From positions 1 through 64,000 of the forward strand of contig NZ_SSMQ01000041.1 of the NCBI RefSeq assembly GCF_005144585.1: a stretch of 64,000 bases of DNA, given 5' to 3'. A program made the translations under genes and the position numbers. The notes beneath the pieces are model-generated. The model searched no databases and was not told the DNA's origin. It saw only the letters and a program-made list of their open reading frames with translations. Positions 15,266-28,844 of this stretch are shown here, piece after piece. This stretch comes from Polyangium fumosum (lineage in GTDB: Bacteria; Myxococcota_A; Polyangia; Polyangiales; Polyangiaceae). Within the stretch, counting starts at the first letter, position 1, and each line of letters opens with the position of its first letter.

Positions 15266-15517
15266 GGGTATGCCTGCCTTGTAAGTTGACGGCGAGGATT
15301 GAGACGAACGGGGGGGCAGGGAACGTCAATGGCAGGGTGGGGAAGCAAGAACTTGACGGGTCGGGGGGGGGGCGCGTAAGGTAAGACACGAATGCGGGCG
15401 AATGCGGAAGGGGACGAAGCAGCGGAGGGCGGCGGTCGTGCTCCTGGGCGCGCTCGGGGCCCCTGGTGGTTCACGGGTGTGTGATTCAGCCAGCCGAGGG
15501 GCCGCGCGAAGCGGGGG

Positions 15518-18103
15518 TCACCTCCGAGACGGCGAGAGTTCGTGCACAGCTTTGAGATCGCTGCTCGCGGGGAGCGTGAACCGAGATCGAAACCCATCAT
15601 CGCGTCGCGCCGCAAGCCATTGCAACGCATGATGAGCGCCGACTTTGCCACTCAATAAGGCGCCATAGAGATAGGCGTATTCGTCCCCCAAGGACGTCGC
15701 GAAGCTGATGGGGTCATCGGTGTTGATGGAGAGCTGAACTGGCTGTTCGTCGTGGCGCGATCCGCCTGGGATGGGCTGAAATCGAAATGCCGGATGTGAA
15801 TCGACGCTCCCCATGTCGTTGATCAGGAGGTTGCTCGTCGGATTGGCCTCGATGGTCATCTCTCGGCGAGCGATCTCGACTCGCAGCCTGTGGCCCACGA
15901 GCCGGAGCATTCGCAGTTCACCATCGCTCATCCGAACCTCGACGAGATCCTGCCCGCGTGCGAACATCGGCGCGTCCGTCAGGTATCGATGCACGAGCTT
16001 TTCGATGTCATCTTCCGGGACGCGTCCATGCACAAATGGATAGCCGAGGCGCCGCAAGACTGCGCTCTCGTGGAGGCTGCGGCGTGCGAGCCCGAGATGG
16101 TCGAGGTCCTGGCAAGCTCCGAACATGCGCTTGGTCAAGTCGAGCGCCTCGGCGCGCACCTGTTCGACGCGGCCAGCGTCCGCGGGCAGTTCGCCCGACT
16201 TGTACCAGTCGAGCTCCCACAAGAGATCGAGGAGCCGCTCCTCGACGGGCTGCACGGTCACCGGATGCTCCCGGGCCCAGCGCTCGGGGTCGACGCCCGC
16301 GGCGAGCCCATGGCCGATGCGATCACCTGCTTCGAGGAGGCCGAATTCCAGGAGCTCATGCATTCGACGAAGGCCCTCGGCGAGGCGACGAAAATCCTCC
16401 CCCGCGTGATACGTGGCGCCCAGCGGTTTGACCTTCCAGTGCGGATGCGTGCGCGCGAGCCTCGCGCCGGCTCGATGCGCCGCTCGTCTGACTCTCTCGA
16501 AGGGAAGGACGAATGCCCACGTCGGCACAGACAGCTCATCCGATGCGACGTCAATGCCGCGCAAGACGAGCAACAGCTCTGGTTGATGGGTGAGCGCTAC
16601 AGCTATGGCGGCAGCCTCTTCCATGCACCCGAACGAGAATGCACCGAAGCGACACCCGTGGCCACGCTGGCGAGGGTCGGCGTTGAGCCTTTTCTTCCCG
16701 GCGTGCTTTCGAGAGTCTTTCTTCAGGAAATGCAGCACAAGGCCTACTTCGGGACGGGCCTTGTCGTCCACGGAGGGGACGCATGCTTCGCGGACGAGGT
16801 CACGCACCTTTGCCCACGAGCGCTCAGGAGATGTGCGCATTTCAATGGCGGCGAGACCAACGCCTCGACGTGCGCTGTGAACGGCCACATCGAAGCCGGC
16901 TCCGTCGATGCAGGAGCGTAGTGGCGAGATACGCTCGTAGTGCTGCTGAAACCAGCCGAGCCCCGCGGTGCCCGGTTCGACGGAGAGGTGGCGGAAGGTG
17001 AGCGCGCGTATTCGCTGGTATTGCCAGAAGGCGCGCGCGAAGGGCCTGTCTTTCCGCCCCTCGTGGAGCAGGTATGCCAGGCCGCGCCGTGACAAGCGCG
17101 TCTCGGTCGTGGCCACGTCATGACTTCCACCGAGCCATTCCGTGAGCGGATCGGCTTCGAGCACGTCGGCCATCGTCTTGGCCGAGCGTGGGGCCTTCGG
17201 ACCGAGGAGGCGGCGATGCGCTGAGGCGAGGAGTGCAGCCGGCGGCGCGTCTCCGCCGAAGACCACCATGCGAAGGGCCAGGACGCACACACGCACGAAA
17301 TCGTCTTCGCCCGCGGGCCAGGCAGCGAGCGGGGCGATGCACCTCCGGAGCGGACCTTCGGGATCGTCGATGAAGCTCTGGAACGACGACACGCGTCCGA
17401 TGCGATCACGACGCCACAAGAAGCCAGCAAGAAAGAGGCGTGTCATGGCGGCAGCCTGGAGCATCCTGTGGAAGGAATGGGGCGAGCCGAAGGGTGGGGT
17501 ACCGCCGCGGCCGAGCTTTTCGGTATCGAGCGGATGATAGGGCAGGCGGCTCATCAATCCGATCCAGAGGAGCTGAAACGAAGAGGCCGCGCCTACGTGC
17601 AAATGGGTCTCGGCGACGTCCTTTTCGAGTCGGCTCGCGAGGTGCGGGGTCAAGAGATCCGCGTAATCGACGGCCGGGTCGGTCCGCATGTCGACCGAGC
17701 ACGCGGCGACGAGGAGATCTGGGGGCAGGAGCAGGGAGAGCCAGCGGAAATGCGCGAGCGGCTCCTCGATGGTGGGGCTCGTGCGCAGGGCGATGTGGCC
17801 TCCACGTTGCGTCAAAGAACGCTTGGCGAGGCGGAGGAGGTAGTCGGCCATGTCGACGGGCCCGGGGGTCTCGTCGAACCAGGCGAGGTCACGGATTTGC
17901 CGGAGGGATTCGAGGGAATGGCCGCGCGAGCGGGGGCGGATCCAGTCTTTCAGGGCATCTGCTAGCTTTTGGGTCGGAGCATCGAGCAGGTGCTCGTCGT
18001 TTTTTCCGAGGGAGAGGAGGAGCTGGCGATGGGATGCCTCGGAGGCCAAAGGGAAGGCCTCGCAGGCGGCGCGGAGGTAGGCGACATCGACGGGACCCGG
18101 CAT
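15518..18103 (-). CDS. rdrB: RADAR anti-phage system adenosine deaminase RdrB
   Basis: 861 aa, much longer than housekeeping adenosine deaminases (about 350 aa), as known for RdrB. All deaminase landmarks are present in order: HLH (167-169, zinc ligands), YHAGE (His566, Glu569), RIGHG (His598), EANPTSN (752-758, matching the ECPTSN loop) and SINTDDP (Asp796/Asp797). About 390 residues separate the first and second motifs, the large insertion typical of RdrB. It begins 3 nt after the rdrA stop. Published RdrB assembles into a large shell with RdrA and converts adenosine to inosine, described as RNA editing and as ATP-to-ITP conversion, to abort phage infection. The activity here is inferred from intact motifs. 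Confidence 0.93.
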   Translation of the reverse strand: MPGPVDVAYLRAACEAFPLASEASHRQLLLSLGKNDEHLLDAPTQKLADALKDWIRPRSRGHSLESLRQIRDLAWFDETPGPVDMADYLLRLAKRSLTQRGGHIALRTSPTIEEPLAHFRWLSLLLPPDLLVAACSVDMRTDPAVDYADLLTPHLASRLEKDVAETHLHVGAASSFQLLWIGLMSRLPYHPLDTEKLGRGGTPPFGSPHSFHRMLQAAAMTRLFLAGFLWRRDRIGRVSSFQSFIDDPEGPLRRCIAPLAAWPAGEDDFVRVCVLALRMVVFGGDAPPAALLASAHRRLLGPKAPRSAKTMADVLEADPLTEWLGGSHDVATTETRLSRRGLAYLLHEGRKDRPFARAFWQYQRIRALTFRHLSVEPGTAGLGWFQQHYERISPLRSCIDGAGFDVAVHSARRGVGLAAIEMRTSPERSWAKVRDLVREACVPSVDDKARPEVGLVLHFLKKDSRKHAGKKRLNADPRQRGHGCRFGAFSFGCMEEAAAIAVALTHQPELLLVLRGIDVASDELSVPTWAFVLPFERVRRAAHRAGARLARTHPHWKVKPLGATYHAGEDFRRLAEGLRRMHELLEFGLLEAGDRIGHGLAAGVDPERWAREHPVTVQPVEERLLDLLWELDWYKSGELPADAGRVEQVRAEALDLTKRMFGACQDLDHLGLARRSLHESAVLRRLGYPFVHGRVPEDDIEKLVHRYLTDAPMFARGQDLVEVRMSDGELRMLRLVGHRLRVEIARREMTIEANPTSNLLINDMGSVDSHPAFRFQPIPGGSRHDEQPVQLSINTDDPISFATSLGDEYAYLYGALLSGKVGAHHALQWLAARRDDGFRSRFTLPASSDLKAVHELSPSRR

Positions 18104-18106
18104 GGC

Positions 18107-21100
18107 TCAGGGCGTCTTGTTTCGGAGGGGCTCCTCGATGGCGGTTATCCACGGATGCGTGGGGAACCCTTCGTCAATCGTCTGAAGAAAAGCGTCGCGA
18201 CGCGGTGCGGGGACGTTGAGGTATGTCAGTCGTTCCCGGCGCAGCTTGGCGAGCTCTTCGCGACGCTGCGTGAGGTCGGGGATCGTCTGCAAGATGATCG
18301 CTGCGACGGGTTGGCTCAAGCCGGACTCGGGGGCCGCGAGTAGGCCGATGTGATCGAGAAAATCGTAGAACGCACGGCGGTGAGCGTTCGGCGGGTTGGG
18401 TTGGGAGCGTCTTTGGCTGAAGCAGTATTTGAGACTATTCTCCCATTGCGTCACTTCCGAAGCAATGGCAAAATTGATGTGCCCAAGATCGCATCTGTGT
18501 CCGCTAAAATGTTCGATCGTCGTGACGTACCAGTACGCGGCCGAGTCGCCGAAGACCTCCCTGCTGCTACCGGCCTCTGCTGCTTCATCGGCGAGCTTAT
18601 CGATGGCCGGTACGACCTTTTCATTCCACGCGTGTAGCAGTCGTTCCCAATCGAGGAACCTCGGCCACACGGCAGCGGGCCATGGGTATCGCTCGATATC
18701 AGAATAGACGCCGCCCGCGAGCGGCCAGAAGGCGGGCAGCGGCGCTAGGTCGCGCTTGCTCAGATCGCTCTCGATGTCCCAAACCATGCGAAAGAGGGCA
18801 TGGAGGTACGGGGCGGTTTTTTTGTCCTTCGACCATGCGAGCTCCCCGCGCGAGAGCCCAAGTGCCATCTTGTCCGTGCTGCCCGAATCCAAGCGCAAGT
18901 TTCCCGTCGACACCCGCTGGAGGGCAGGACGACCCAGCTCCTTGAACGCCTTGTTGATATCGAGCTCCAGCCGCCCGCGATAGAGAACCGCCTCTTGCAA
19001 CGCAGCAGGCGCATCCCTCGTCGCGATTCGCCAGAGCCTCTCGATCGCGATGTCGCCCGCAGCCCCTTGCTGCCTGGCCAAGGCTTCGAGCGCGTTGTGC
19101 ATTCGCTCGAGCATGTCGACCGGAGCACTTCGCAGCTCCGCTATGCGTGTCGGCGTCAGGTAGGACGTCAGCGTTCCGGCCGACCGATCACCGGGCACTG
19201 AGATTCTATCCATCCGCCTCAGGAGCGCACGGAACGTCGTATCAGGATCGCGCTCGATCAATGCGTGCCACGTATGGTTTGGCGATTTCGCCCGAATTTC
19301 GCGAAGATCTTGCACGAGCTGGTTCTTAGCCTCCGCGTCCAGATCGAACTGGTCAACATCTCCCCAGGGAAGCACTCCACCCCGTGCCGCCAGTATCCGC
19401 GCCCGACGCCGCTCCATCAGTTGCACGCGAACCAGCTTCCACTCGTCCTCTGAAAACAGCGCGAACAATGCCTCCAACCATGCATTGGCATTCTCTGCAT
19501 CAAGGCCCGATTCAGGCGCGGCGAGCAGCGGTGCGTCCAGGCTCGCCCATGTCTTCAGGGCAGGATCGGCGTCCCGGTTGTCCCATATTGCTTGCAACCG
19601 TTCCGCGCGGCTACGCCACGGGTCATCGTCCTCTTTAGGTTCACCCCCGAGTACCGCGTCGAGATAAGCTCTCGCGAGGTCCCCGACGGTTTCCTGTTTC
19701 GTCTTCGCGAGCGTCTCCAGCCGTTTCGACCAGCGCTTGCTAAAAGCAATATAATCCGCAAACCTCGGCCATACGGGCGTGGGCCACGAGATCCAGGAAA
19801 ATTCCTCCCCCATGCGCGCCATGACGACGGCGAATTCGTTCGTCTCGATTGAGGGCGCGACGAGCGAGCGTACGTGACGATTCCTGGAATCCCGCCCATA
19901 ATCGAGCAAAGGAAGCAGGCATGCCGCAAGAGCCTCGGGCAGGGCCGCCCCTTTGGAATCATAGACCCCCAGGTGCCATTGGTCGGCCACCTCCACGCGC
20001 GTCTCGCCCGATGCGCCGAACGAACGCAGTGTCGTCGAGAAACGGAACTTGTTCTCAGAATTGATACGAACGACGACCCGACGCTCATCGTCCTCCGTCA
20101 CCCAATCCTCGAGTGCTAACGCTGGCCAGGCGACATCAAGCCCATACTTCCAAAGATAGTGCAGCACCCGCGCTTCGACGACGCCCTCCTCGACCCCCTT
20201 GCCTCGGATGTCGATCCCGGGAACCCAAAGCGCGAAATCCTGCAAAGGCCGGAGCCGCTCGGGCAACGCCACCTTCAGCGTCGCATATTGCGCGAAGAGC
20301 TCCCGTGCCCGCGAAATGCGCCTCTGCTCCTCCGGCTTCGTCTTCGCGGAGAACCATCGGTCGAGCAACGTATAGCGCTCATCGGATCGTAGAGCCTTGA
20401 GTTCCAGGCGATGCAGCGGCGGCACCACCTTGTCATAGATGTTGCGCGGTAATGAGCGAACCAGGGGCTCCGCCGAAGAGACGGCCCCCTTCCCTGAGAC
20501 CGCTAGCTCTTTTTCCACCTGTACGTGGAGGGCGGCCCGGAACAATTCCGTATCTCCTGTCAACAAGAACGCCACGCGCGGATGCCAGAGCGTACGCACG
20601 ACATCCACGAGCTCCGCCGCCTTCGGCACGTTCATATCCGCATCGTCGATGCCCATCACGAAGAGCGGCGGCCCGCCTCGATGCCAGCGCGTCTGCCGGT
20701 ACTCCTCGACGAGCGCATCCATGAAGCGCCGAAAGCACGAGACCACATCGAGCCGCTGCTCCTCGGCCTGCTCGAGCTCCACAGCATACGTCTCCGGATC
20801 CGCGTGTGCTCGCCGCCCCTTCAGCGATCCATCCCAGCCCGCCGCCGCGGCCTGCAAGAACCGCCGCCATTCCGTCGCGCTCTTCGAGCCCTCCGGCTCC
20901 GCTCCATGCCAAGGCGTCCGTGAACCCCCTTGGCCCGTCGCGCTCTCGATCACCTGCACGATTCGCTTGAATCGCGTCACCAGATATAAAAGCAAGTTGG
21001 TAGCGCGCGGCAACGGCTGCAAATCGAGCAACCCCACTGGGACGACCTGGCCAAGCGGCTCGAGCGCGTTCTGAAGCTCTTTGTCCGGCTCTGCCGGCTT

Positions 21101-21415
21101 GTCACCTCGTTCTGCCTCGCGCCGAACACCAAAGCTCCACACATGCATGTGCGTGACAAGCAACGCCGTCTTCCCCGAGCCTCGCCCGCCATCCAGCAAA
21201 ATGACGTGATTGAGACGTTTCTCGTCAATGAGCGGCAAAAAGACATCGACGTGCGCGTCGCCTTTCTGAGGCGGCAAGGGCTGCTCCGCGAGAACCCGGA
21301 CGAGCTTGCCAACCCGCTTGGTCGCATCCTGCTGCTCCGTCGTCATATCCTTCCAGGTAAGCGGTCGGGCTTCAGGACGAGGTTCGAGCGCGTCGATGTT
21401 CTCTGGAGACATCAT
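18107..21415 (-). CDS. rdrA: RADAR anti-phage system ATPase RdrA
   Basis: 1102 aa from the ATG at 21415 (an in-frame TTG at 21442 is the only longer option). Residues 76-83 form Walker A (GGRGSGKT) and residues about 250-258 form Walker B (LFVMGIDDAD); both belong to a STAND/AAA-like NTPase module, and a long helical C-terminal region follows. Large size, P-loop near the N-terminus and immediate linkage to the deaminase identify it as RdrA. In studied systems RdrA forms a ring that docks on the RdrB shell and controls it. Base composition is locally lower in GC than in the neighbours (25 G+C of 60 in the line starting 18421 by my count), consistent with horizontal acquisition. Confidence 0.92.
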   Translation of the reverse strand: MMSPENIDALEPRPEARPLTWKDMTTEQQDATKRVGKLVRVLAEQPLPPQKGDAHVDVFLPLIDEKRLNHVILLDGGRGSGKTALLVTHMHVWSFGVRREAERGDKPAEPDKELQNALEPLGQVVPVGLLDLQPLPRATNLLLYLVTRFKRIVQVIESATGQGGSRTPWHGAEPEGSKSATEWRRFLQAAAAGWDGSLKGRRAHADPETYAVELEQAEEQRLDVVSCFRRFMDALVEEYRQTRWHRGGPPLFVMGIDDADMNVPKAAELVDVVRTLWHPRVAFLLTGDTELFRAALHVQVEKELAVSGKGAVSSAEPLVRSLPRNIYDKVVPPLHRLELKALRSDERYTLLDRWFSAKTKPEEQRRISRARELFAQYATLKVALPERLRPLQDFALWVPGIDIRGKGVEEGVVEARVLHYLWKYGLDVAWPALALEDWVTEDDERRVVVRINSENKFRFSTTLRSFGASGETRVEVADQWHLGVYDSKGAALPEALAACLLPLLDYGRDSRNRHVRSLVAPSIETNEFAVVMARMGEEFSWISWPTPVWPRFADYIAFSKRWSKRLETLAKTKQETVGDLARAYLDAVLGGEPKEDDDPWRSRAERLQAIWDNRDADPALKTWASLDAPLLAAPESGLDAENANAWLEALFALFSEDEWKLVRVQLMERRRARILAARGGVLPWGDVDQFDLDAEAKNQLVQDLREIRAKSPNHTWHALIERDPDTTFRALLRRMDRISVPGDRSAGTLTSYLTPTRIAELRSAPVDMLERMHNALEALARQQGAAGDIAIERLWRIATRDAPAALQEAVLYRGRLELDINKAFKELGRPALQRVSTGNLRLDSGSTDKMALGLSRGELAWSKDKKTAPYLHALFRMVWDIESDLSKRDLAPLPAFWPLAGGVYSDIERYPWPAAVWPRFLDWERLLHAWNEKVVPAIDKLADEAAEAGSSREVFGDSAAYWYVTTIEHFSGHRCDLGHINFAIASEVTQWENSLKYCFSQRRSQPNPPNAHRRAFYDFLDHIGLLAAPESGLSQPVAAIILQTIPDLTQRREELAKLRRERLTYLNVPAPRRDAFLQTIDEGFPTHPWITAIEEPLRNKTP

Positions 21416-21561
21416 CCAGCGCACAGTAAGCGCCAAGCCCAAGCCTGGTCAATGATCAACCCGACCAAGCTATCCCAGCTTCGCTGGTCGCTCCCGCTCA
21501 CATCTCCGCAGCGCACTTCCTGCACCTCGCGAACAAGGCGCCTTTTCGGACGCGATCCATC

Positions 21562-21790
21562 GCCGGCGAGCCCCCCGCCCAGATCGGACCTCGCCGGTGC
21601 CTCGTCCGCGAGACCCGGCTCCAGATCGGACTTCGTCGGGTGCCTCGTCCGCGAGACCCGGCTCCAGATCGGACCTCGCCGGTTGCCTCGTCCGCGAGAC
21701 CCCCGCCCAGATCGGACCTCCCCGGGGCCTCGTCGACCAGGCACCCGACGAGGTCCGATCTCCTCCGGGGTCTCGTCGTCGAGGGATCCG
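21562..21790. repeat. 43-bp tandem repeat array upstream of rdrA
   Basis: Three well-matched 43-bp units start at 21599, 21642 and 21685. Each opens with GCCTCGTCCGCGAGACC, continues with CCAGATCGGAC and ends CGCCGGT-like. A partial unit precedes them (21562-21598) and two degraded units follow (about 21727-21790). Units are head to tail with no unique spacers, so this is a minisatellite rather than a CRISPR. No stable reading frame with a start codon covers it. It lies 147 bp from the rdrA start. Confidence 0.8.
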
Positions 21791-21820
21791 GGTGAACTTA
21801 CGTTGTCGTTGCGTGTAGGT
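21791..21820 (+). promoter_or_regulatory. 30-bp duplicated upstream element, copy 1
   Basis: The 30 bp from GGTGAACTTACG to GCGTGTAGGT match 24229-24258 at 27 of 30 positions. The GAACTT block followed 16 nt later by TAGGT resembles the spacing of extracytoplasmic sigma factor promoters, but the -10 match is poor. Located 98 nt before the ATG at 21919 and 23 nt before an alternative ATG at 21844. Role inferred only from conservation in front of two related genes. Confidence 0.45.
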
Positions 21821-21918
21821 GCGGAGGGAGAGGTACGGGGTTGATGAGGGGCCTTGCCTTCGGCTGGGTGCGGGACTGCACCTTCCTGCGTGGCGCGGTT
21901 GGGCCGTCAGGATTTACG

Positions 21919-22590
21919 ATGAGCGTCTCCATGGCAGTGCCCCCTTCCCGGACGGTCGATTTCTTTCAAGCGCTGGCCCGCGCGCGCGACCTCCTGCCAG
22001 AGGCACGAGCCATTCTCGACGAGAGGGCTCTCGTGCGTCCCGACTTGATGACAGAAGCATTGCAGGTGTATGGCACTACGCTCGCGTGGGCGGCCTTCGA
22101 TCCCGACGATGTCTCGCACCTCGAACGGCTGATCAAGGCGATCGCCGGGGACGTCTATGTCGTCGGTCATTTCGGGGTTCCTGCTCATTTGCAGGTGATT
22201 CACGTTCGATATGAGGAAGCGGATGGTGTTCAGCTCGACGTCGATCTTGGTCTCGACGTCATGCTGATTGGAGTCACCGTTCCAACGATCGGCCTCATTC
22301 ATCACGACGGACTGTCCGCCGTCGTGACCGACCTCCCAGCCCGCGGGTCACCAGAAGAAGCGCGAGAGCTCGAACGACATTTGGTGGAGCAAGCCGAGCG
22401 ACGACGGAGCGAAGCGCTGGCGTGCCTGCCACAGGCCGTGCGGGAGGGCATGTTGGCGATTCTCGAAGGGCAGAAGAGCATCGCTGCCATCAAGTATCTT
22501 CGAGAACAACTCGGGTGTTCGCTGTCGACCGCGAACGACATCGTCGACGCCGTTCAGCCATGGTGGCCTCGCGGTCGTGGTTCGGCGTGA
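21919..22590 (+). CDS. Unknown protein with L7/L12-like C-terminal helical motif
   Basis: 223 aa from ATG 21919, preceded by AGGA; an ATG at 21844 with GGAGGGAGAGG further upstream is an alternative. It has no signal peptide or membrane helix. The N-terminal half is helical, the middle contains hydrophobic beta-like segments (LDVMLIGVTVPTIGLI), and residues near the C-terminus (GQKSIAAIKYLREQLG, then ANDIVDAV) match the helix-turn-helix of the ribosomal L7/L12 C-terminal domain, which in other proteins is a small interaction module. It shares the segment RGSPEEAR and the L7/L12-like motif with the protein at 24292, and both genes follow the same 30-bp DNA element. Function unknown. Confidence 0.75.
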   Translation: MSVSMAVPPSRTVDFFQALARARDLLPEARAILDERALVRPDLMTEALQVYGTTLAWAAFDPDDVSHLERLIKAIAGDVYVVGHFGVPAHLQVIHVRYEEADGVQLDVDLGLDVMLIGVTVPTIGLIHHDGLSAVVTDLPARGSPEEARELERHLVEQAERRRSEALACLPQAVREGMLAILEGQKSIAAIKYLREQLGCSLSTANDIVDAVQPWWPRGRGSA

Positions 22591-22597
22591 AGCCGCC

Positions 22598-24052
22598 TCA
22601 GAAAATCCCGTGCCCCGGCGTGAGCACGTAGTCGGGATCGTATTCGTCCTTCGCAGCCACGAAATCGCACCACGCGTCGCCGAAGTGGTCCTGCCAGTCG
22701 GCCTGCGTGACGTCGAGCGAGCCGATCGGGTACCGCTTTCCTCCGAGCAGCACGAGCTCGTCGTAGAGGGCGCGGTTTTGCGCGACGAGAGCCGCGACGG
22801 CCGAAGGCACCGGCGGGGCGAAGCGCAGCAGGCTGAACAGAAACACGTGTTCGCTGTCAGGCAACGCGAGGAAGGGCGTCGTCACCTTGTCCCTCCGGAA
22901 GGCATAAAAGAGGATCGGACCCCCGCCCATCGTCGAAGCATCCTCCTCGGCGAGCCTGCCCTCGACGAACGCCGCCGCATCCGGGCCCGGCACGAAGACG
23001 TCGATCCACGGGTGCGGCAATGCCCAGGCGCCGACCGATTGCAAGAACGCCACGGTGGCCGCGATGCGGTTCGCGAAATCGAAATACGTGACGTCGCTCG
23101 TGACGACCGTGCCCGGGACGAAGGAGAGCCCCGCGAGCATGGCGCTGTCGTTCGGCGGCGCGCCCGGCGTGAAGTATTTCGTCGCTTCGAGCTTGTAGAT
23201 GGGGGGGGCCGCGGGCTGGAGCTCCGCCATTCCTTCGAGGTAATCGAAGCGCTGGTCGTCCGCGAGCGCCATTTGATCCGCCGCGAAGACGGCAGCGTCC
23301 GTGTAGGTGGCCGTGTAGACGCGCGCCATCGGGGCGACGTCGACGAGGCGGATCCGCGCCCGCACGATGATCCCGAACTGCCCGAGCCCGCTTCGCACCG
23401 CGTGGAAGAGGTCCGCGCGTTTCGTGGGGGAGCACTTGACCCGCTTGCCTTCCCCGGTGACGACCTCCAATTCGAGCACGTTGTCGACCTGAAGCCCGTG
23501 CCGGGACACCTGACCGCCGATCCCTCCCATCGACAGCGTGCCGCCCACGCTGAGCTCGATGTAATCGGTGAGCGTGGGCGGGCTCTTGCCGAGCGGCACG
23601 GTGACGGCGAGAATCTCGCTCCACCGCACGCCCGCATCGACGAGCACGCCATGCGCGTCGATTTCGTGGATCTCCGCGAGCGCCCGCATGTCGATGATCA
23701 CGCCCACGTCGAGCTGCGCCTGGCCGTACGTGCTGTGGCTCTCGCCGAGCCCCCGCGAGCCGGCGACCGCGATCCCGAACTTGCGGGCGAACTTCACGAT
23801 GGTGACGATGTCGTCCACCGAGCCCGGGACGAGCACGGCGCTCGGCGTCTTGCTGATGATGTGACCAAAATCGTCGGCGGCCTGGGTTCGCGTCGCTGCG
23901 TCGAAGAGGAGCGCGCCGTCGAGCTTGGGGATCTTCACCTTTCCCGGCCCATGATGCGAGGCCCAGGCTTTCGTGGTGGGATCGAATGCGACGATGGCCG
24001 CAGCGGCCACGACGGTCTTCAGGAAACGACGGCGCGCAAGGGAATCGGGCAT
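22598..24052 (-). CDS. FAD-dependent oxidoreductase, cytokinin dehydrogenase-like, Tat-exported
   Basis: 484 aa from the ATG at 24052, which has AGGAGGAG upstream; the longer frame to 24139 is not needed. A twin-arginine leader (RRRFLK, residues 7-12, then a hydrophobic run) implies export with FAD already bound. The VAO/PCMH FAD-binding domain is clear: VLVPGSVDDIV, RGLGESHSTYGQ with His106 aligned to the histidine that binds FAD covalently in plant cytokinin dehydrogenases, and LSVGGTLSMGGIGGQVSRHG. The second half fits the cytokinin-binding domain. It may oxidise N6-isoprenoid adenines or another amine or alcohol; substrate not deducible. Convergent with the gene ending 7 bp away. Confidence 0.88.
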   Translation of the reverse strand: MPDSLARRRFLKTVVAAAAIVAFDPTTKAWASHHGPGKVKIPKLDGALLFDAATRTQAADDFGHIISKTPSAVLVPGSVDDIVTIVKFARKFGIAVAGSRGLGESHSTYGQAQLDVGVIIDMRALAEIHEIDAHGVLVDAGVRWSEILAVTVPLGKSPPTLTDYIELSVGGTLSMGGIGGQVSRHGLQVDNVLELEVVTGEGKRVKCSPTKRADLFHAVRSGLGQFGIIVRARIRLVDVAPMARVYTATYTDAAVFAADQMALADDQRFDYLEGMAELQPAAPPIYKLEATKYFTPGAPPNDSAMLAGLSFVPGTVVTSDVTYFDFANRIAATVAFLQSVGAWALPHPWIDVFVPGPDAAAFVEGRLAEEDASTMGGGPILFYAFRRDKVTTPFLALPDSEHVFLFSLLRFAPPVPSAVAALVAQNRALYDELVLLGGKRYPIGSLDVTQADWQDHFGDAWCDFVAAKDEYDPDYVLTPGHGIF

Positions 24053-24228
24053 GAAAGGCTCCTCCTGTTCGGCACCGGGTGCAGGTGTGGGGCCAGGGCC
24101 ATGCGTGGACCTGGCCCGATCGGATCGCAATCGGGACATTCGAGCCGTGGACGAGGGTGAATGTCTCGCATCCGCTGGGAGGATAGTCCTTTGGGTCGAG
24201 TGTGTCGCTATTTTTGATGCTCGCCCGA

Positions 24229-24258
24229 GGTGGACTTACGCTGTGGTTGCGTGTAGGT
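24229..24258 (+). promoter_or_regulatory. 30-bp duplicated upstream element, copy 2
   Basis: GGTGGACTTACG to GCGTGTAGGT, 27/30 identical to 21791-21820. It ends 33 nt before the GTG start at 24292. Such near-identity in otherwise unrelated flanking DNA suggests a shared promoter, a common regulator site or a recent duplication of the gene start region. Confidence 0.45.
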
Positions 24259-24291
24259 ATCGGGTTCGTTCCAACGTTGGGGGAGGATGTC

Positions 24292-25221
24292 GTGATCAGC
24301 GAGGCCGAACGATGGCCGACGGAGCTCCGGCTGCTGAATGGCGCCATGGTGATGGACGGCGGCTCTCTCGTTCTTCACGCCGTGGACCAAGACGACGCGC
24401 GGGTCGAGTTCTCCCTGGATTGGTCCATTCAAAGCCAGCGGGAGGGCACGACGCAGTTTTACGTGAATGGCCGGCTCGTCCCCCGAGGGTCGCCCGAAGA
24501 GGCACGCTGGCTTTCGCTCCTCGGCGGGGCGGTGCCAAAGCCGCGCAATCCACGGCCGGCGTCCAAGGACGGGGCCAGCTCGAGCGATGGCGTGATCGTG
24601 GCCGAAGACGCCGCCGCGTATTGGAATGCAATCGAGCAAGGACCCGCGTCCGCCCTCGTGCACCTGGCAACCCGTTTCGTCACCTTGATCTCGTCGTCAG
24701 CCTACCAGGAGGGCTGCGCGCCCGTTCCGCCGCAAGCTCCACAGAATCGCGTCCGATCGCTCGTGATGGAGGGCAAGAGGATGGAAGCCATCAAAGCTTA
24801 TCGTGAAGCTCATCCCGACGTCGGGATCGTGGCGGCCGGCAGCGCAGTGAAGGCCCTGGGGGCAGAAATGGAGCAGGCGATGCGTCGAGGCAGAATCGTG
24901 ACCCGAATCCCGGTCGAGGAGCTCTGGACGGACGATGGCGTGCTGGCCGCGACGCGCCTCCGTACCCTTGACCGCGTCGCCATTCGCGACCTCTTACGCC
25001 GGGGTCCCGTTCGGTTCGTGGTCGCCGATGTCGGCCACGACCTGAGATGGATCCCACCCGCCGAAAGATTCGATTTCTGGAAACGGGACGGCGAGATCCA
25101 CTTCGCCCTGACGAAAGAGGTTCACCTCGATGATCTCCCCGACGGCATGGCCTACCTGGCGTCCGAATGGACCGTTGCCGGCGACGAGGCCCCCGTCCTC
25201 CTTCTGGAAGTTTACCATTGA
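24292..25221 (+). CDS. Unknown protein, related to the gene at 21919
   Basis: 309 aa from the GTG at 24292, chosen for the GGGGGAGGA ribosome-binding site 5 nt upstream; the longer frame would run through the upstream element. No export signal. It shares RGSPEEAR and an L7/L12-like helical motif (EGKRMEAIKAYREAHP) with the product of 21919, then carries an extra C-terminal domain of about 110 residues (starting near MRRGRIVTRIPVEELW) absent from that protein. No family recognised. The two genes flank the Tat flavoenzyme gene. Roles in regulation or protein interaction are possible; nothing in the sequence shows catalysis. Confidence 0.75.
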   Translation: MISEAERWPTELRLLNGAMVMDGGSLVLHAVDQDDARVEFSLDWSIQSQREGTTQFYVNGRLVPRGSPEEARWLSLLGGAVPKPRNPRPASKDGASSSDGVIVAEDAAAYWNAIEQGPASALVHLATRFVTLISSSAYQEGCAPVPPQAPQNRVRSLVMEGKRMEAIKAYREAHPDVGIVAAGSAVKALGAEMEQAMRRGRIVTRIPVEELWTDDGVLAATRLRTLDRVAIRDLLRRGPVRFVVADVGHDLRWIPPAERFDFWKRDGEIHFALTKEVHLDDLPDGMAYLASEWTVAGDEAPVLLLEVYH

Positions 25222-25233
25222 AGGATGAAAGGC

Positions 25234-25352
25234 GCTGCGCGCCCCGGAGGCGAGCGGTCGTACCCGCAAAAGCACGTCCTTTAAGGCTTCTTCTGCCTCG
25301 CAGGACGATACCCTCGCTTCGGATATTACCGCCCACGTCCGGGGCGCGCAGC
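25234..25352. repeat. Long imperfect palindrome (nested inverted repeats) between convergent genes
   Basis: An exact 15-bp outer inverted repeat pairs GCTGCGCGCCCCGGA (25234-25248) with its complement at 25338-25352. Nested inside are a partly complementary arm and an inner stem CGTCCT (25275-25280) / AGGACG (25302-25307) enclosing AGGC/GCCT. The whole would fold into one hairpin of about 119 nt. It sits in the 199-bp gap between two convergent genes, so it could act as a bidirectional terminator or be a small palindromic mobile element. No T-tract is adjacent. Confidence 0.6.
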
Positions 25353-25420
25353 CGAAGTCTGTGCTCCATCATTTGAATCAAAATCGCATTTCTGTCAAGG
25401 GCTTTTTGCCCGTGCGCGTA

Positions 25421-26542
25421 TCAGGCGGCGGCGCTCGTGCGGCGCAGGAGGGTGCCCGCCGCGCCCGCAATCCATACCTCGCCGGGGCCGGTCCCGCTGA
25501 TCGCGTGCAATGCCTCCGTCGTCCCGCTCTTCTGTAGCTTCCACGTCGTGCCCCCATCCGACGTATGCAGGATCGTTCCACCGCGCCCCACGGCATAGAC
25601 GTCTCCGGGGCCGCTGCCCCATACTGCGTACAGGTTCTCGGTCGTCCCGCTCGTCTGCGCGGTCCACTGCATTCCGTCGGTCGAATGCAGGATCTTGCCC
25701 CCCGCGCCGACCACGTACACGTCGTTCGGGCCACTTCCCCATACGCCGAAGAGATCCCGCGAGGTCCCGCTCGGCGTCGACTGGAAACCGTTGTCCGTCT
25801 TGTACAGGAGGGTCCCCGCGCCTCCGACGACGTAGGCATGCCCGTGCGAGGACGCCCAGACCGCATGCAGGGGATAGGATTTTGATGGAACGGGCAGGGG
25901 CTGCCACGCCGTGCCCGACGTCGTTGATTGGAGAATCGTCCCCGCGTCGCCGACGGCATACACGAGCCCCGAGCCCGAGCCCGCGATGCCATTCAAGGAG
26001 ACGTTCGTGTTGCTCGCGATGGGGACCCACGCCCCGCCCGGCTTCGGGCAGCGCAGGACGAGCCCATTGCCACCCACGGCGCAGAGCTCGCCCGCGCCGC
26101 TGCCCCACACGGCGTGCAGGCGCTGGCCGGTCGCGTCGCTCGCGGGGCCGAATGTCTCGCCGTCCGGCGACCACAAAAGGACGCCGAGCTTTCCCACGGC
26201 GTAAACGTCGCCCGAGGATCTCGCGTGAATGCCGTAGAGGCTCTCCGTCGTGCCGGAATAGAGCGCCTTCCACGGATCGACGGGCGCGCCCCCCGGGCCC
26301 GTGAGCTCGGCCCCGGGCGGGAGCGCCGAGAAGCTCATCGTGAGCCTCGCCAGATAGGCTGGATCCGGCGTGACGCCGGCCTCGGGGTTCGGCACTTCGA
26401 GCAAGACCTCGAGGCCCTTTTGCGACAGGATCGCCGGCACCTCCACCTTGAGCTCGGAGACGGCGAATCCGTCCGACTGCTCGACCTTCGCGAGCGACGT
26501 GCGGAACGCGGAGAGAAAATGCGTGAGCGTGACGAATGCCAT
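25421..26542 (-). CDS. Seven-bladed beta-propeller protein (YCF48/BNR-like repeats)
   Basis: 373 aa. Residues 1-95 are a helical/beta N-terminal domain (FLSAFRTSLAKVE, SELKVEVPAIL). Residues about 96-373 contain seven repeats of about 40 residues of the form LxAVWGSGPGDVYAVGxxGTILxSxDGGTTW, like those of the photosystem II assembly factor YCF48 and BNR sialidase-type propellers. The strand WKALYSGTTE before the first repeat pairs in register with the last, closing the ring. No signal peptide or lipobox. It is the last gene of a four-gene minus-strand cluster, 24 nt after its neighbour. The propeller probably binds partners; no catalytic residues seen. Confidence 0.85.
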   Translation of the reverse strand: MAFVTLTHFLSAFRTSLAKVEQSDGFAVSELKVEVPAILSQKGLEVLLEVPNPEAGVTPDPAYLARLTMSFSALPPGAELTGPGGAPVDPWKALYSGTTESLYGIHARSSGDVYAVGKLGVLLWSPDGETFGPASDATGQRLHAVWGSGAGELCAVGGNGLVLRCPKPGGAWVPIASNTNVSLNGIAGSGSGLVYAVGDAGTILQSTTSGTAWQPLPVPSKSYPLHAVWASSHGHAYVVGGAGTLLYKTDNGFQSTPSGTSRDLFGVWGSGPNDVYVVGAGGKILHSTDGMQWTAQTSGTTENLYAVWGSGPGDVYAVGRGGTILHTSDGGTTWKLQKSGTTEALHAISGTGPGEVWIAGAAGTLLRRTSAAA

Positions 26543-26566
26543 GACGTTACCTCCGGTTCCCCGTGA

Positions 26567-27319
26567 TCATTTCGTCGAAGCGGGCGCGAGGGGCGGAAAG
26601 GTGCCGGCGCGGAAGTCGATACGCACGCTGCCGACGAGCTCCATGCTCTTCGAAGCGGCGATCGAGCGTTCATTGGCGACCCGCACGCGCACGCCGAGCG
26701 AGGACGCAGGTTTCGGCGATAAGGCCGTACTGCCCGGCGTGGGGCTCGGGGACGAGACCTCGGATTGCGTGATCGTCATCGTCACCTTCGTGCAGATCTG
26801 GCCCCCCGTGACCACGATGTTCGGCAACCCTGCGCGGAGCAAGGCCGTCACGCGCGCGTGGGTGAGCGACGCGTCCCTCCGGATCTTCGCCGTGACGAGC
26901 GAGAGGAGGTTCGCCTTCTGCACGAACCACGGAAAGACGGCGCTCTGGGACGGCTCGACGAGCTCGCTCACGAGCCGAGGCGCGCCGGACACGTCCGTCG
27001 CCACGACGCGATGAAAATGGGCGAGGAAGGGCTCCCTCCGCGCCTCGGCGAAATAAAGAGGGTCCGGAATCTCCGCGGTCGGGAGCACGAGCAGGGGGAG
27101 GACGACCGTCCGGATGTAGGTTTCGACGGTCGCCTGCTTTTCCGCCTCCGTGAGGCCGAGGATCTTTTCTTGATACGCTTCGAGCGGCATTCCAACCTCG
27201 GCGGCGAGATCGGCGTACGCCTCGGCCTGCTCCATGGCCGAATCCGTGATCGAGCGGAAGACATCCCGCACGAGCGTCGTCGTGAGATCGGCGAGCGGAA
27301 ACTCCAGGTTGGTCGTCAT
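26567..27319 (-). CDS. Unknown protein, paralogue of the 27613-28542 product
   Basis: 250 aa, no signal peptide. The N-terminus (TTTLVRDVFRSITDSAMEQ, then AEAYADL and LEAYQ) aligns with the cluster's first gene (SGLVRNVFGTIVDSTMEQ, LEAYTEL, LEAYEQ), and both end with a similar strand pair (ELVGSVRIDFRAGTFPPL against IMGEVELKFRSDYFPSF). A conserved middle (NIVVTGGQICTKVTMTI against KLVITEGRIATKITFHV) confirms they are paralogues. Its start overlaps the stop of the upstream 92-aa gene by 4 bp. I recognise no family. The alternation of a helical N-terminal half with a beta C-terminal half suggests a structural or assembly component. Confidence 0.75.
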   Translation of the reverse strand: MTTNLEFPLADLTTTLVRDVFRSITDSAMEQAEAYADLAAEVGMPLEAYQEKILGLTEAEKQATVETYIRTVVLPLLVLPTAEIPDPLYFAEARREPFLAHFHRVVATDVSGAPRLVSELVEPSQSAVFPWFVQKANLLSLVTAKIRRDASLTHARVTALLRAGLPNIVVTGGQICTKVTMTITQSEVSSPSPTPGSTALSPKPASSLGVRVRVANERSIAASKSMELVGSVRIDFRAGTFPPLAPASTK

Positions 27320-27594
27320 GCACGTTCCTCCAAGGCGTCCGCGCGCGGGGCGAGGACGACCACGATCCGGGAGAGCAAATGGGCTGCGCGCGGGCGGCGG
27401 AGCCCGATACGAACGCCGCGCGCGTGGCAGATGATCGAGGCCGGTATGTCGATCTCGATTCGCTCGATCGAGACGGGCGCCGGGGCGATGCCTTGGCCCG
27501 CCCCGGCGCCCTCGAGCTCGATCGCACGAGCGCTCGCGCTCGCAGCCTCTCGGCGCAGCGCCTCCACGAATTCACCGAGCTCGCCGTGGTTCAT
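27316..27594 (-). CDS. Small unknown protein of the four-gene cluster
   Basis: 92 aa. A helical N-terminus (ELGEFVEALRREAASASARA) and a beta-rich C-terminus with the segment SIERIEIDIPASII. That segment resembles SELKVEVPAILS near the N-terminus of the propeller protein in the same cluster, so the two may share a small domain. It starts 18 nt after the first gene of the cluster and overlaps the next gene by 4 bp, so co-translation is likely. No known family recognised. Confidence 0.7.
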   Translation of the reverse strand: MNHGELGEFVEALRREAASASARAIELEGAGAGQGIAPAPVSIERIEIDIPASIICHARGVRIGLRRPRAAHLLSRIVVVLAPRADALEERA

Positions 27595-27612
27595 GGGCCT
27601 CTTCCCAGGCGC

Positions 27613-28542
27613 TCAGGGGCCGGCGGGCGCCGCCGGATCAAACGACGGGAAATAATCCGACCGGAACTTCAGCTCCACCTCGCCCATGATTTCGGCGTCG
27701 AGGGTCGTGACCGCGGTCTTTTGCTCGTTCACGACGTTGACCTTGAGCGTGGTGGACTGCTTGGTCCTGGCCCCGCCGAGCTGGAACCCGAGGGCGCGCT
27801 TCAGCACCGAGCCGCTGAGGCTGCCGCCGATGTTCGAGGCCTGCACCGTGTAATCGGTCGTCGCGCTGGACGACTGCTGCGCGTCGGATTCGGACGCGGA
27901 CACGTGGAATGTTATCTTGGTCGCGATGCGGCCCTCGGTGATCACGAGCTTCTGCATGCCGAGCTTCAGGATCGTGAGGAGCTTGTCATACGAGGCCTTG
28001 AGCTCCTTGCGGAACTTCGCGAGCGTGAAGGCATAAAGGCGCTCGGCGGGCATCTCGTTGTTCGCGGTGAGGACTTGGTTGTCGTAGATCGTGCGCTCGA
28101 TGGGGCTCAATTCGCCGGCGAACTTTACGGGGACGACGACGCCCGCGTAATGCGCCTTGAAATCCGCGAGCTTCGTCGCGTCGATCTTGATCGTGTCCGG
28201 CGTGTAGACGGCACCGGCGCGCGAGAACGTGGTCCAGCCCGCGTCGCCGAAGGTCGGTCGAATGAAGTTCGCGATGTACTTGATGACGTCGCCCGTATTG
28301 CCTTCCAGGTTGGGGAAGGTGCGCTGCTCGTAGGCTTCGAGCGAGCCGGAGACGCTGGCGACGAGCTCGGTGTACGCTTCGAGCTGCTCCATCGTCGAAT
28401 CGACGATCGTGCCGAAGACGTTGCGGACGAGGCCGGACGTGAAGTCCACGAAAGTATCGAGCACGGCCTGTCCCTTGAGGACGGCGTCGATCGCCCGACC
28501 CGTGGCAGATTCCTCGAGCTTGTTGAGTTCGAGTGGTCCCAT
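27613..28542 (-). CDS. Unknown protein heading a four-gene cluster
   Basis: 309 aa. The ATG at 28542 has GGAGGATC upstream and is preferred over the longer frame to 28608. No signal peptide or membrane helix. Helical N-terminal half (residues 20-75, with VLDTFVDFTSGLVRNVFG and STMEQLEAYTEL), a beta-rich remainder, and a Ser/Gln/Thr-rich loop around residues 205-220. It is the larger paralogue of the 26567-27319 product. First gene of the cluster, with two perfect inverted repeats in its upstream region that could be operators. No family recognised. Confidence 0.78.
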   Translation of the reverse strand: MGPLELNKLEESATGRAIDAVLKGQAVLDTFVDFTSGLVRNVFGTIVDSTMEQLEAYTELVASVSGSLEAYEQRTFPNLEGNTGDVIKYIANFIRPTFGDAGWTTFSRAGAVYTPDTIKIDATKLADFKAHYAGVVVPVKFAGELSPIERTIYDNQVLTANNEMPAERLYAFTLAKFRKELKASYDKLLTILKLGMQKLVITEGRIATKITFHVSASESDAQQSSSATTDYTVQASNIGGSLSGSVLKRALGFQLGGARTKQSTTLKVNVVNEQKTAVTTLDAEIMGEVELKFRSDYFPSFDPAAPAGP

Positions 28543-28629
28543 ACTAAGGATCCTCCAATTCTTCGCGGGCCCGTCCCTCCCCATGAACCCACAACCACGC
28601 GGGTACATGGGCGGCGCAATCTTGTGGCC

Positions 28630-28654
28630 ATGCCATCGACCACACGGATGGCAT
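28630..28654. promoter_or_regulatory. Inverted repeat ATGCCATC-N9-GATGGCAT
   Basis: Perfect 8-bp arms separated by 9 bp, centred 100 bp upstream of the ATG at 28542. Could be an operator or an RNA hairpin in the leader of the four-gene cluster. Confidence 0.45.
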
Positions 28655-28700
28655 TCGCGAAGTATTTGTAGTGAACAAAAATCGCGAGCCGGTCAATGCA

Positions 28701-28726
28701 AGAATGTCACACGAATGGGACATTCT
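28701..28726. promoter_or_regulatory. Inverted repeat AGAATGTC-N10-GACATTCT
   Basis: Perfect 8-bp arms separated by 10 bp, a geometry typical of dimeric regulator operators. It lies just upstream, on the minus strand, of the TTGACC/TACAAAT promoter-like pair, so an activator or repressor of the four-gene cluster could bind here. No regulator gene is adjacent. Confidence 0.5.
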
Positions 28727-28844
28727 TTGTCCATCGCCGGATTGACAATGCGCGCGGAAGATTCCACGTCGCCCACGGCGGGATTCCTGCGAGGGGGCGC
28801 GGGCGCCTGGCGGGATCGGCTCTTGCGGCGCTAAGGCGCCGGGC

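What the first reader, a model, noticed from the sequence alone, without database searches (positions are those of the whole stretch)
15518..21415. RADAR anti-phage system (rdrA-rdrB) in a myxobacterium-type genome
Adjacent genes encode a large P-loop ATPase (GGRGSGKT, Walker B LFVMGIDDAD) and an 861-aa protein with all adenosine deaminase landmarks split by an insertion of about 390 residues. This is the RdrA/RdrB architecture. The SLATT and Csx27-like membrane accessory genes known from some RADAR loci are not seen, so this would be a minimal version. Lower local GC inside rdrA suggests acquisition.
Basis: partly seen in the sequence, partly recalled or inferred. Interest (0 to 1): 0.65.

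Follow-up and report, generated by a model that had tools for sequence, protein, structure and literature searches.

The report
RADAR phage defence with doubled RdrA lobe
A bacterium of the myxobacterial phylum carries an acquired two-gene anti-phage system of the known RADAR kind, and its suspected sensor protein has a second tandem copy of its C-terminal half.

Summary
The finding holds. The two minus-strand genes are a standalone (rdrAB) RADAR pair: rdrA 18107-21415 and rdrB 15518-18103. RdrB has the catalytic residues of E. coli RdrB. Its AlphaFold model (pLDDT 88.3) matches solved RdrB over the whole length (Z 32.0, 680 residues) and plain deaminases only over the core (Z at most 21.7). 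An RdrA profile finds E. coli RdrA first among solved proteins (1.6e-21). Low NCBIfam scores do not count against membership: a near-copy of solved E. coli RdrB scores lower still. Of 73 relatives, 66 have an RdrA-like gene upstream; the other 7 start at contig ends.

None of five congeners has it there, and in one its edges lie 18 bp apart. It has the two lowest GC3 values of 42 genes. (2) RdrA carries a tandem duplication of its C-terminal lobe: a profile built only from single-lobe relatives hits it at two places. I found no description of this in the papers searched.

Likely mechanism, inferred from E. coli RADAR and not shown here: RdrA senses infection and activates RdrB, which converts ATP/dATP to ITP/dITP.

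The parts
18107..21415 (-). rdrA, 1102 aa, AAA+ ATPase with two tandem C-terminal lobes
15518..18103 (-). rdrB, 861 aa, adenosine deaminase family, 3 bp after rdrA
20216..21415 (-). RdrA residues 1-400: AAA+ ATPase part, with a helical insert between residues 131 and 251 at the place of the E. coli crown
   Evidence: PMC9994260
21167..21190 (-). RdrA Walker A GGRGSGKT
20642..20647 (-). RdrA Walker B D257 D258
19214..20215 (-). RdrA residues 401-734: C-terminal lobe, copy 1 (WPTPVW at 544, APESGL at 633)
18107..19213 (-). RdrA residues 735-1102: C-terminal lobe, copy 2 (WPAAVW at 912, APESGL at 1028)
17597..17605 (-). RdrB HxH (H167, H169), zinc ligands by homology
16397..16408 (-). RdrB H566 and catalytic E569 (HAGE)
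16310..16312 (-). RdrB H598
15713..15718 (-). RdrB D796 D797
15360..21573 (.). Species-specific insert holding only rdrA and rdrB; edges lie 18 bp apart in congener G339
21574..21820 (.). Intergenic repeat at the right edge of the insert, multi-copy in the genome and found at this locus in four of five congeners

Best explanation
This is a standalone RADAR (rdrAB) anti-phage system that looks intact and was acquired horizontally by this species. Shown here: gene pair, sequence and predicted RdrB fold, catalytic residues, co-inheritance of the two proteins, species-specific insertion, and a doubled C-terminal lobe in RdrA. Inferred from characterised RADAR: RdrA forms a ring whose C-terminal lobes sense an unknown sign of infection; RdrA docked on an RdrB shell raises RdrB activity; RdrB deaminates ATP and dATP to ITP and dITP, which poisons the nucleotide pool and stops phage growth at a cost to the cell. 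Hypothesis: the second lobe adds a further sensing or ring-stabilising layer on the side of RdrA away from RdrB.
For: PADLOC RdrB 1.6e-26 and RdrA 7.6e-7. RdrB finds E. coli RdrB first in the PDB, 3.9e-22; a 15-sequence RdrA profile finds E. coli RdrA at 1.6e-21. RdrB model: Z 32.0 over 680 residues to 8fnv, against at most 21.7 for listed plain deaminases. The 17 Foldseek matches of the RdrA model at E 0.001 or better all come from RADAR entries. Catalytic residues conserved in 85 RdrB and 81 RdrA proteins. 66 of 73 relatives have an RdrA-like ORF upstream, the other 7 begin at contig starts. RdrB and RdrA identities correlate over 78 loci, r 0.895, 0 of 999 permutations as high. Control: Pantoea RdrB, a near-copy of solved E. 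coli RdrB, scores 114.6 bits on the NCBIfam model on which the window protein scores 128.6. Mechanism in E. coli: PMC9994260, sections 8-14 read.
Against: Both proteins fall far below the NCBIfam cut-offs (128.6 of 800, 47 of 600 bits). RdrA alone finds nothing in the PDB, and in the profile search an unrelated-looking AAA ATPase (9n00, 2.2e-4) ranks ahead of S. suis RdrA (0.0043). The RdrA model is poor (pLDDT 56.6). The acidic triple E595-E597 of E. coli RdrB, needed there for the shell and for defence, is C, Q, D here; but only 1 of 85 rows, the E. coli type itself, has three acidic residues there. The C-terminal lobe is not alignable to that of E. coli-type RdrA. No activity, ring or shell is shown.
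Confidence: 0.82

Rival explanations
1. RADAR-like pair with another substrate: fold and partner are RADAR's, but in this deep branch RdrB deaminates RNA, another nucleotide or a signal molecule.
For: The branch has no member known to me to have been studied; the E. coli-type row lies elsewhere in the tree. The first report of RADAR proposed RNA editing (PMC7699616 passages).
Against: Catalytic residues are unchanged and inserts are of like size. E. coli RdrB did not edit RNA under conditions in which it converted ATP (PMC9994260).
Confidence: 0.12
2. Degenerate RADAR: acquired, but no longer functional in this species.
For: Two congeners hold broken RADAR pieces elsewhere. Composition is poorly adapted to the genome.
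Against: Both frames are open over their full length with all catalytic residues; the lobe copies keep conserved motifs.
Confidence: 0.05
3. Not RADAR: a housekeeping purine deaminase beside an unrelated ATPase.
For: RdrA alone finds nothing in the PDB, and Pfam sees only the deaminase domain and weak NTPase hits.
Against: The pair is conserved and co-inherited, is absent from the five congeners at this site, and both fold matches go to RADAR entries first.
Confidence: 0.01

Closest known systems
E. coli RADAR (RdrA 8fnt/8hr8, RdrB 8fnv/8hr7)
   Same: rdrA then rdrB in tandem; AAA+ motifs; His tetrad plus Glu; three inserts in the deaminase; RdrB model matches over 680 residues
   Different: RdrB 19% identical in the structural alignment; C-terminal lobe of RdrA not alignable by hhalign and present twice; the acidic triple of insert 3 is absent
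Standalone RADAR subtype rdrAB (as against Csx27- and SLATT-associated subtypes)
   Same: Only rdrA and rdrB; no accessory gene recognised; subtypes named in PMC7699616
   Different: Nothing that defines the subtype differs; the doubled lobe is an added trait
RADAR pairs of other Myxococcota and one planctomycete (L083, L092, L084, L088, L086, G177, L087)
   Same: RdrB 38-46% identical; same clade; G177, L086 and L087 share the doubled lobe
   Different: L083, L092, L084 and L088 have a single lobe (784-865 aa RdrA)
CRISPR-associated deaminase Cad1
   Same: Deaminase fold used for ATP-to-ITP defence (title and start of abstract of PMC11645235 seen)
   Different: Fused CARF sensor and no RdrA partner (recalled); weaker fold match, Z 20.3 at best

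Membership tests
RADAR (rdrAB) | rdrA and rdrB in tandem | tested here: met
   3 bp apart, same strand; 66 of 73 relatives likewise have an RdrA-like ORF upstream, 55 of these 66 with a gap of -50 to 60 bp
RADAR (rdrAB) | RdrA AAA+ motifs: Walker A, Walker B, sensor 1, sensor 2 | tested here: met
   G81 K82 T83, D257 D258, D288; R389 at the sensor 2 place (71 of 81 rows), one residue off E. coli numbering
RADAR (rdrAB) | RdrA best related to solved RdrA | tested here: met
   Profile 1.6e-21 to 8fnt over the ATPase part only; Foldseek top 17 from RADAR entries, with a weak model
RADAR (rdrAB) | RdrB His tetrad and catalytic Glu | tested here: met
   H167, H169, H566, H598, E569; 85 of 85 rows
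RADAR (rdrAB) | RdrB fold with three inserts in the deaminase core | tested here: met
   Z 32.0, 680 residues aligned, model 14-845 on 8fnv 1-798; segment lengths
RADAR (rdrAB) | Assembled deaminase pocket | not testable with these tools
RADAR (rdrAB) | RdrB dodecamer through acidic residues of insert 3 | tested here: inconclusive
   C, Q, D at the place of E595-E597; the triple is present in 1 of 85 rows, so it does not define the family; assembly not tested
RADAR (rdrAB) | RdrA heptamer, RdrA-RdrB complex, infection-induced ATP-to-ITP conversion, protection | not testable with these tools
   Needs experiment
RADAR (rdrAB) | NCBIfam RdrA/RdrB curated cut-off | tested here: not met
   128.6 of 800 and 47 of 600 bits. 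Not a valid membership test: Pantoea RdrB, a near-copy of solved E. coli RdrB, scores 114.6
Csx27- or SLATT-associated RADAR subtypes | Accessory membrane gene beside rdrAB | tested here: not met
   No PADLOC hit better than E 0.03 and no TM segment in the flanking genes

The most novel reading that the evidence does not exclude
A RADAR variant with a doubled sensor lobe. Tandem duplication of the RdrA C-terminal lobe would give a three-layered ring with two sensing surfaces, and lobes would be gained or collapsed repeatedly by recombination between copies as phage triggers change. Sister pairs with one or two lobes would then make the unknown trigger of RADAR testable by lobe swaps.
Probability: 0.3. 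Interest if true: 0.65.

Novelty: new variant of a known kind. Interest (0 to 1): 0.42.

Why it matters
What RADAR senses is open, and the C-terminal domain of RdrA is the suspected sensor (PMC9994260, discussion and limitations). Here is a branch in which that part is present once in some members and twice in others, on otherwise similar pairs. Such a natural series could show what the domain does. The insert is also a sharply bounded unit of about 6.2 kb that could be cloned whole.

Tried and rejected
Defence island: neighbours in the window, and ten cargo proteins of the same locus from four of five congeners (G339, G370, G377, G368; G292 not tested), gave no convincing PADLOC hit (best for cargo 0.003, JetA, on a protein that Pfam calls a PPDK-type enzyme). 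Six of these ten had no Pfam hit above the cut-off.

Phage or plasmid carriage: no match in 50,697 phage records, none confirmed in one viral-contig scan, six weak plasmid matches, none covering 80%.

Integrase link: RADAR relics in two congeners lie beside phage-type integrases, but these are only 25% alike (E 0.009), and neither has a match in the window at E 0.1 or better.

Direction of the lobe change: single-lobe proteins score higher with copy 1 in the first two parts and with copy 2 in the last part (4 of 4 each, mostly with weak bits). This fits both collapse and duplication; I do not decide.

Lobe against solved structures: the copy 2 profile finds one chain, E 0.43.

Target-site duplication: none seen by eye. 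S. suis and C. rodentium RdrB were not placed in the tree.

'Not in print' for the doubled lobe rests on searches (15 of 162 listed) and 114, open-licence papers only, and on sections 8-14 of one paper.

Dropped rows. RdrB tree and residue counts (85 rows): of the 73 scan loci, six short or broken ones were left out (L110, L111, L117, L120, L126, L129); unnamed loci that repeat named genomes, and L044, L047, L051, L053, L055 and G351, were not entered; nor were five weak or partial matches (L048, L054, L058, L059, L060). RdrA counts (81 rows): L107 (in pieces), G351, G024 and the RdrA of L044, L053 and L055 were not entered. The lobe scan added G351 (82 rows).
Full report
WHAT IS THERE. Two minus-strand genes, rdrA (18107-21415, 1102 aa from ATG 21415) and rdrB (15518-18103, 861 aa), are 3 bp apart. 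RdrA has Walker A (G81 K82 T83), Walker B (D257 D258), sensor 1 (D288) and an Arg (R389) at about the sensor 2 place. RdrB has H167, H169, H566, E569, H598, D796 and D797. Counts over 81 RdrA and 85 RdrB proteins are. The spacing of the last two His (32) equals that of the E. coli type (E. coli numbering from PMC9994260).

IS IT RADAR? PADLOC names both (RdrB 1.6e-26, RdrA 7.6e-7). NCBIfam names both, far below its cut-offs (128.6 of 800 and 47 of 600 bits). Control: the Pantoea plasmid RdrB, a near-copy of solved E. coli RdrB (1675 bits over 799 residues), scores only 114.6 on the same model, while an Aliivibrio RdrB scores 969.6. That cut-off therefore marks one branch, not the family. In the PDB, RdrB finds E. 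coli RdrB first (3.9e-22). RdrA alone finds nothing. A profile of 15 RdrA proteins finds E. coli RdrA (1.6e-21), then another AAA ATPase, 9n00 (2.2e-4), then S. suis RdrA (0.0043).

The RdrB model (19 sequences, pLDDT 88.3) matches 8fnv with Z 32.0 over 680 residues. Among the 50 entries listed, plain deaminases reach at most Z 21.7 and at most 378 residues (Foldseek). The RdrA model is weak (pLDDT 56.6), yet the 17 Foldseek matches at E 0.001 or better all come from RADAR entries, with low TM-scores (0.17-0.28). Pocket geometry was not measured.

RELATIVES. Of 377 genomes of the phylum searched, 25 had a match, the window's own included. A scan of species genomes gave 73 relatives in many phyla. 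In 66 of 73 an RdrA-like ORF lies upstream on the same strand; in one of these (L107) only in pieces. The other 7 begin within 1.9 kb of a contig start. Identities of RdrB and of the first 480 residues of RdrA correlate over 78 loci (r 0.895, Spearman 0.707, 0 of 999 permutations as high). This is what co-inheritance predicts; shared ancestry of the hosts can add to it. In the RdrB tree (quick method) the window protein lies in a 6-row clade (SH-aLRT 95) inside a 9-row clade (99) of Myxococcota and one planctomycete; the E. coli-type row is elsewhere.

ACQUISITION. In congener G339 the left flank (to window 15359) and the repeat at window 21574 lie 18 bp apart; the unique flanks are 92% alike. 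Two cautions: the repeat is only 76% alike and multi-copy (11 matches in the own genome, itself included), so the right edge is less sure than the left; and G339 carries an ORF of its own (636 aa) beyond the repeat. G377 has other cargo from the same left edge, and G370, G368 and G292 also differ there; none of the genes called at this locus in the five matched rdrA or rdrB. rdrA and rdrB have the two lowest GC3 values of 42 genes. G339 holds an rdrA piece and G370 an rdrB end elsewhere; G377 was searched with RdrA but not with RdrB outside this locus.

THE DOUBLED LOBE. Window RdrA, L086, G177 (L032) and L087 have some 370 more residues than the relatives L083, L092, L084 and L088. The extra part is a second copy of the C-terminal lobe. 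A profile built from the four single-lobe proteins alone hits window RdrA at 542-656 (5.3e-14) and again at 909-1061 (1.6e-8), besides a weak piece at 373-424 (0.0015). It hits G177, L086 and G351 at two places and each of its four source proteins once. L087 does not pass 0.01 with it; with the copy 1 profile its second place scores 0.0014. Copy 1 against copy 2 by hhalign: score 83.4, E 1.1e-10. Sixty column shuffles reach 17.7 at most, the reversed profile 20.0, the ATPase part 16.3, RdrB 15.5; without the window sequences the score is 68.7. A genome search with the copy 2 profile finds copy 1 in the same gene at 3.5e-7. Weaker results: plain blastp between the copies gives 29.6 bits against a maximum of 25.0 in 100 shuffles, and window copy 2 alone against the other copy 1s gives E 0.0033.

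Single and double forms are interspersed: at least 3 changes among 8 tree rows, with 1000 aa as the dividing length. The lobe of this clade is not alignable to the C-terminal part of the E. coli type or of three other branches. That it is the same domain as the bottom layer of E. coli RdrA is inferred from position.

MECHANISM. In E. coli RADAR, RdrA heptamers dock on an RdrB dodecamer, infection leads to ITP and dITP made by RdrB, and the RdrA C-terminal domain is the proposed sensor (PMC9994260, sections 8-14 read). I transfer this by homology; nothing here shows activity. The second lobe as an added sensing or stabilising layer is a hypothesis.

NOVELTY. The rdrAB-only layout is a published subtype (PMC7699616, passages). 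The doubled lobe was not found in print in searches. I rate this a new variant of a known kind.

Noticed in passing
L045 3941-6574 (-) and 6793-12258 (+); L047 1712-4261 (+) and 3-1403 (-): In G024 and G208 (one genus) rdrB and the rdrA-like gene are transcribed apart from a common middle, unlike the tandem order reported for all known RADAR (PMC9994260). In L045 the rdrA-like ORF is 1821 aa with a second weak NTPase match (NB-ARC 0.0013, below cut-off).
   Followed up: partly
L158 7152-8054 (G339); L054 1-290 (G370): Two congeners hold RADAR pieces elsewhere: an rdrA start piece between an integrase and an IS4/5-type transposase, and an rdrB end at a contig edge beside another integrase.
   Followed up: partly
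window 15360-28840: Variable locus: five congeners have different gene content here between conserved flanks; tested cargo is not recognised defence.
   Followed up: partly
window 21574-21820: Intergenic repeat with copies elsewhere in the genome and, in four of five congeners, at this variable locus, in either orientation.
   Followed up: partly
L081 8133-9734: In a Rhizobium plasmid an adenylosuccinate synthetase gene (Pfam 2.6e-51) lies about 0.9 kb after rdrB; a purine enzyme beside a purine-deaminating defence.
   Followed up: no
L094 1306-4068; L104 728-3994: Large genes directly upstream of rdrA in two Myxococcota: a ResIII-type helicase (26 bp away) and an AAA/NACHT protein with pentapeptide repeats (103 bp away).
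   Followed up: no
window 22598-24139: Upstream neighbour is a cytokinin-dehydrogenase-like FAD enzyme (Cytokin-bind 1.4e-38), kept beside the site in G339.
   Followed up: no
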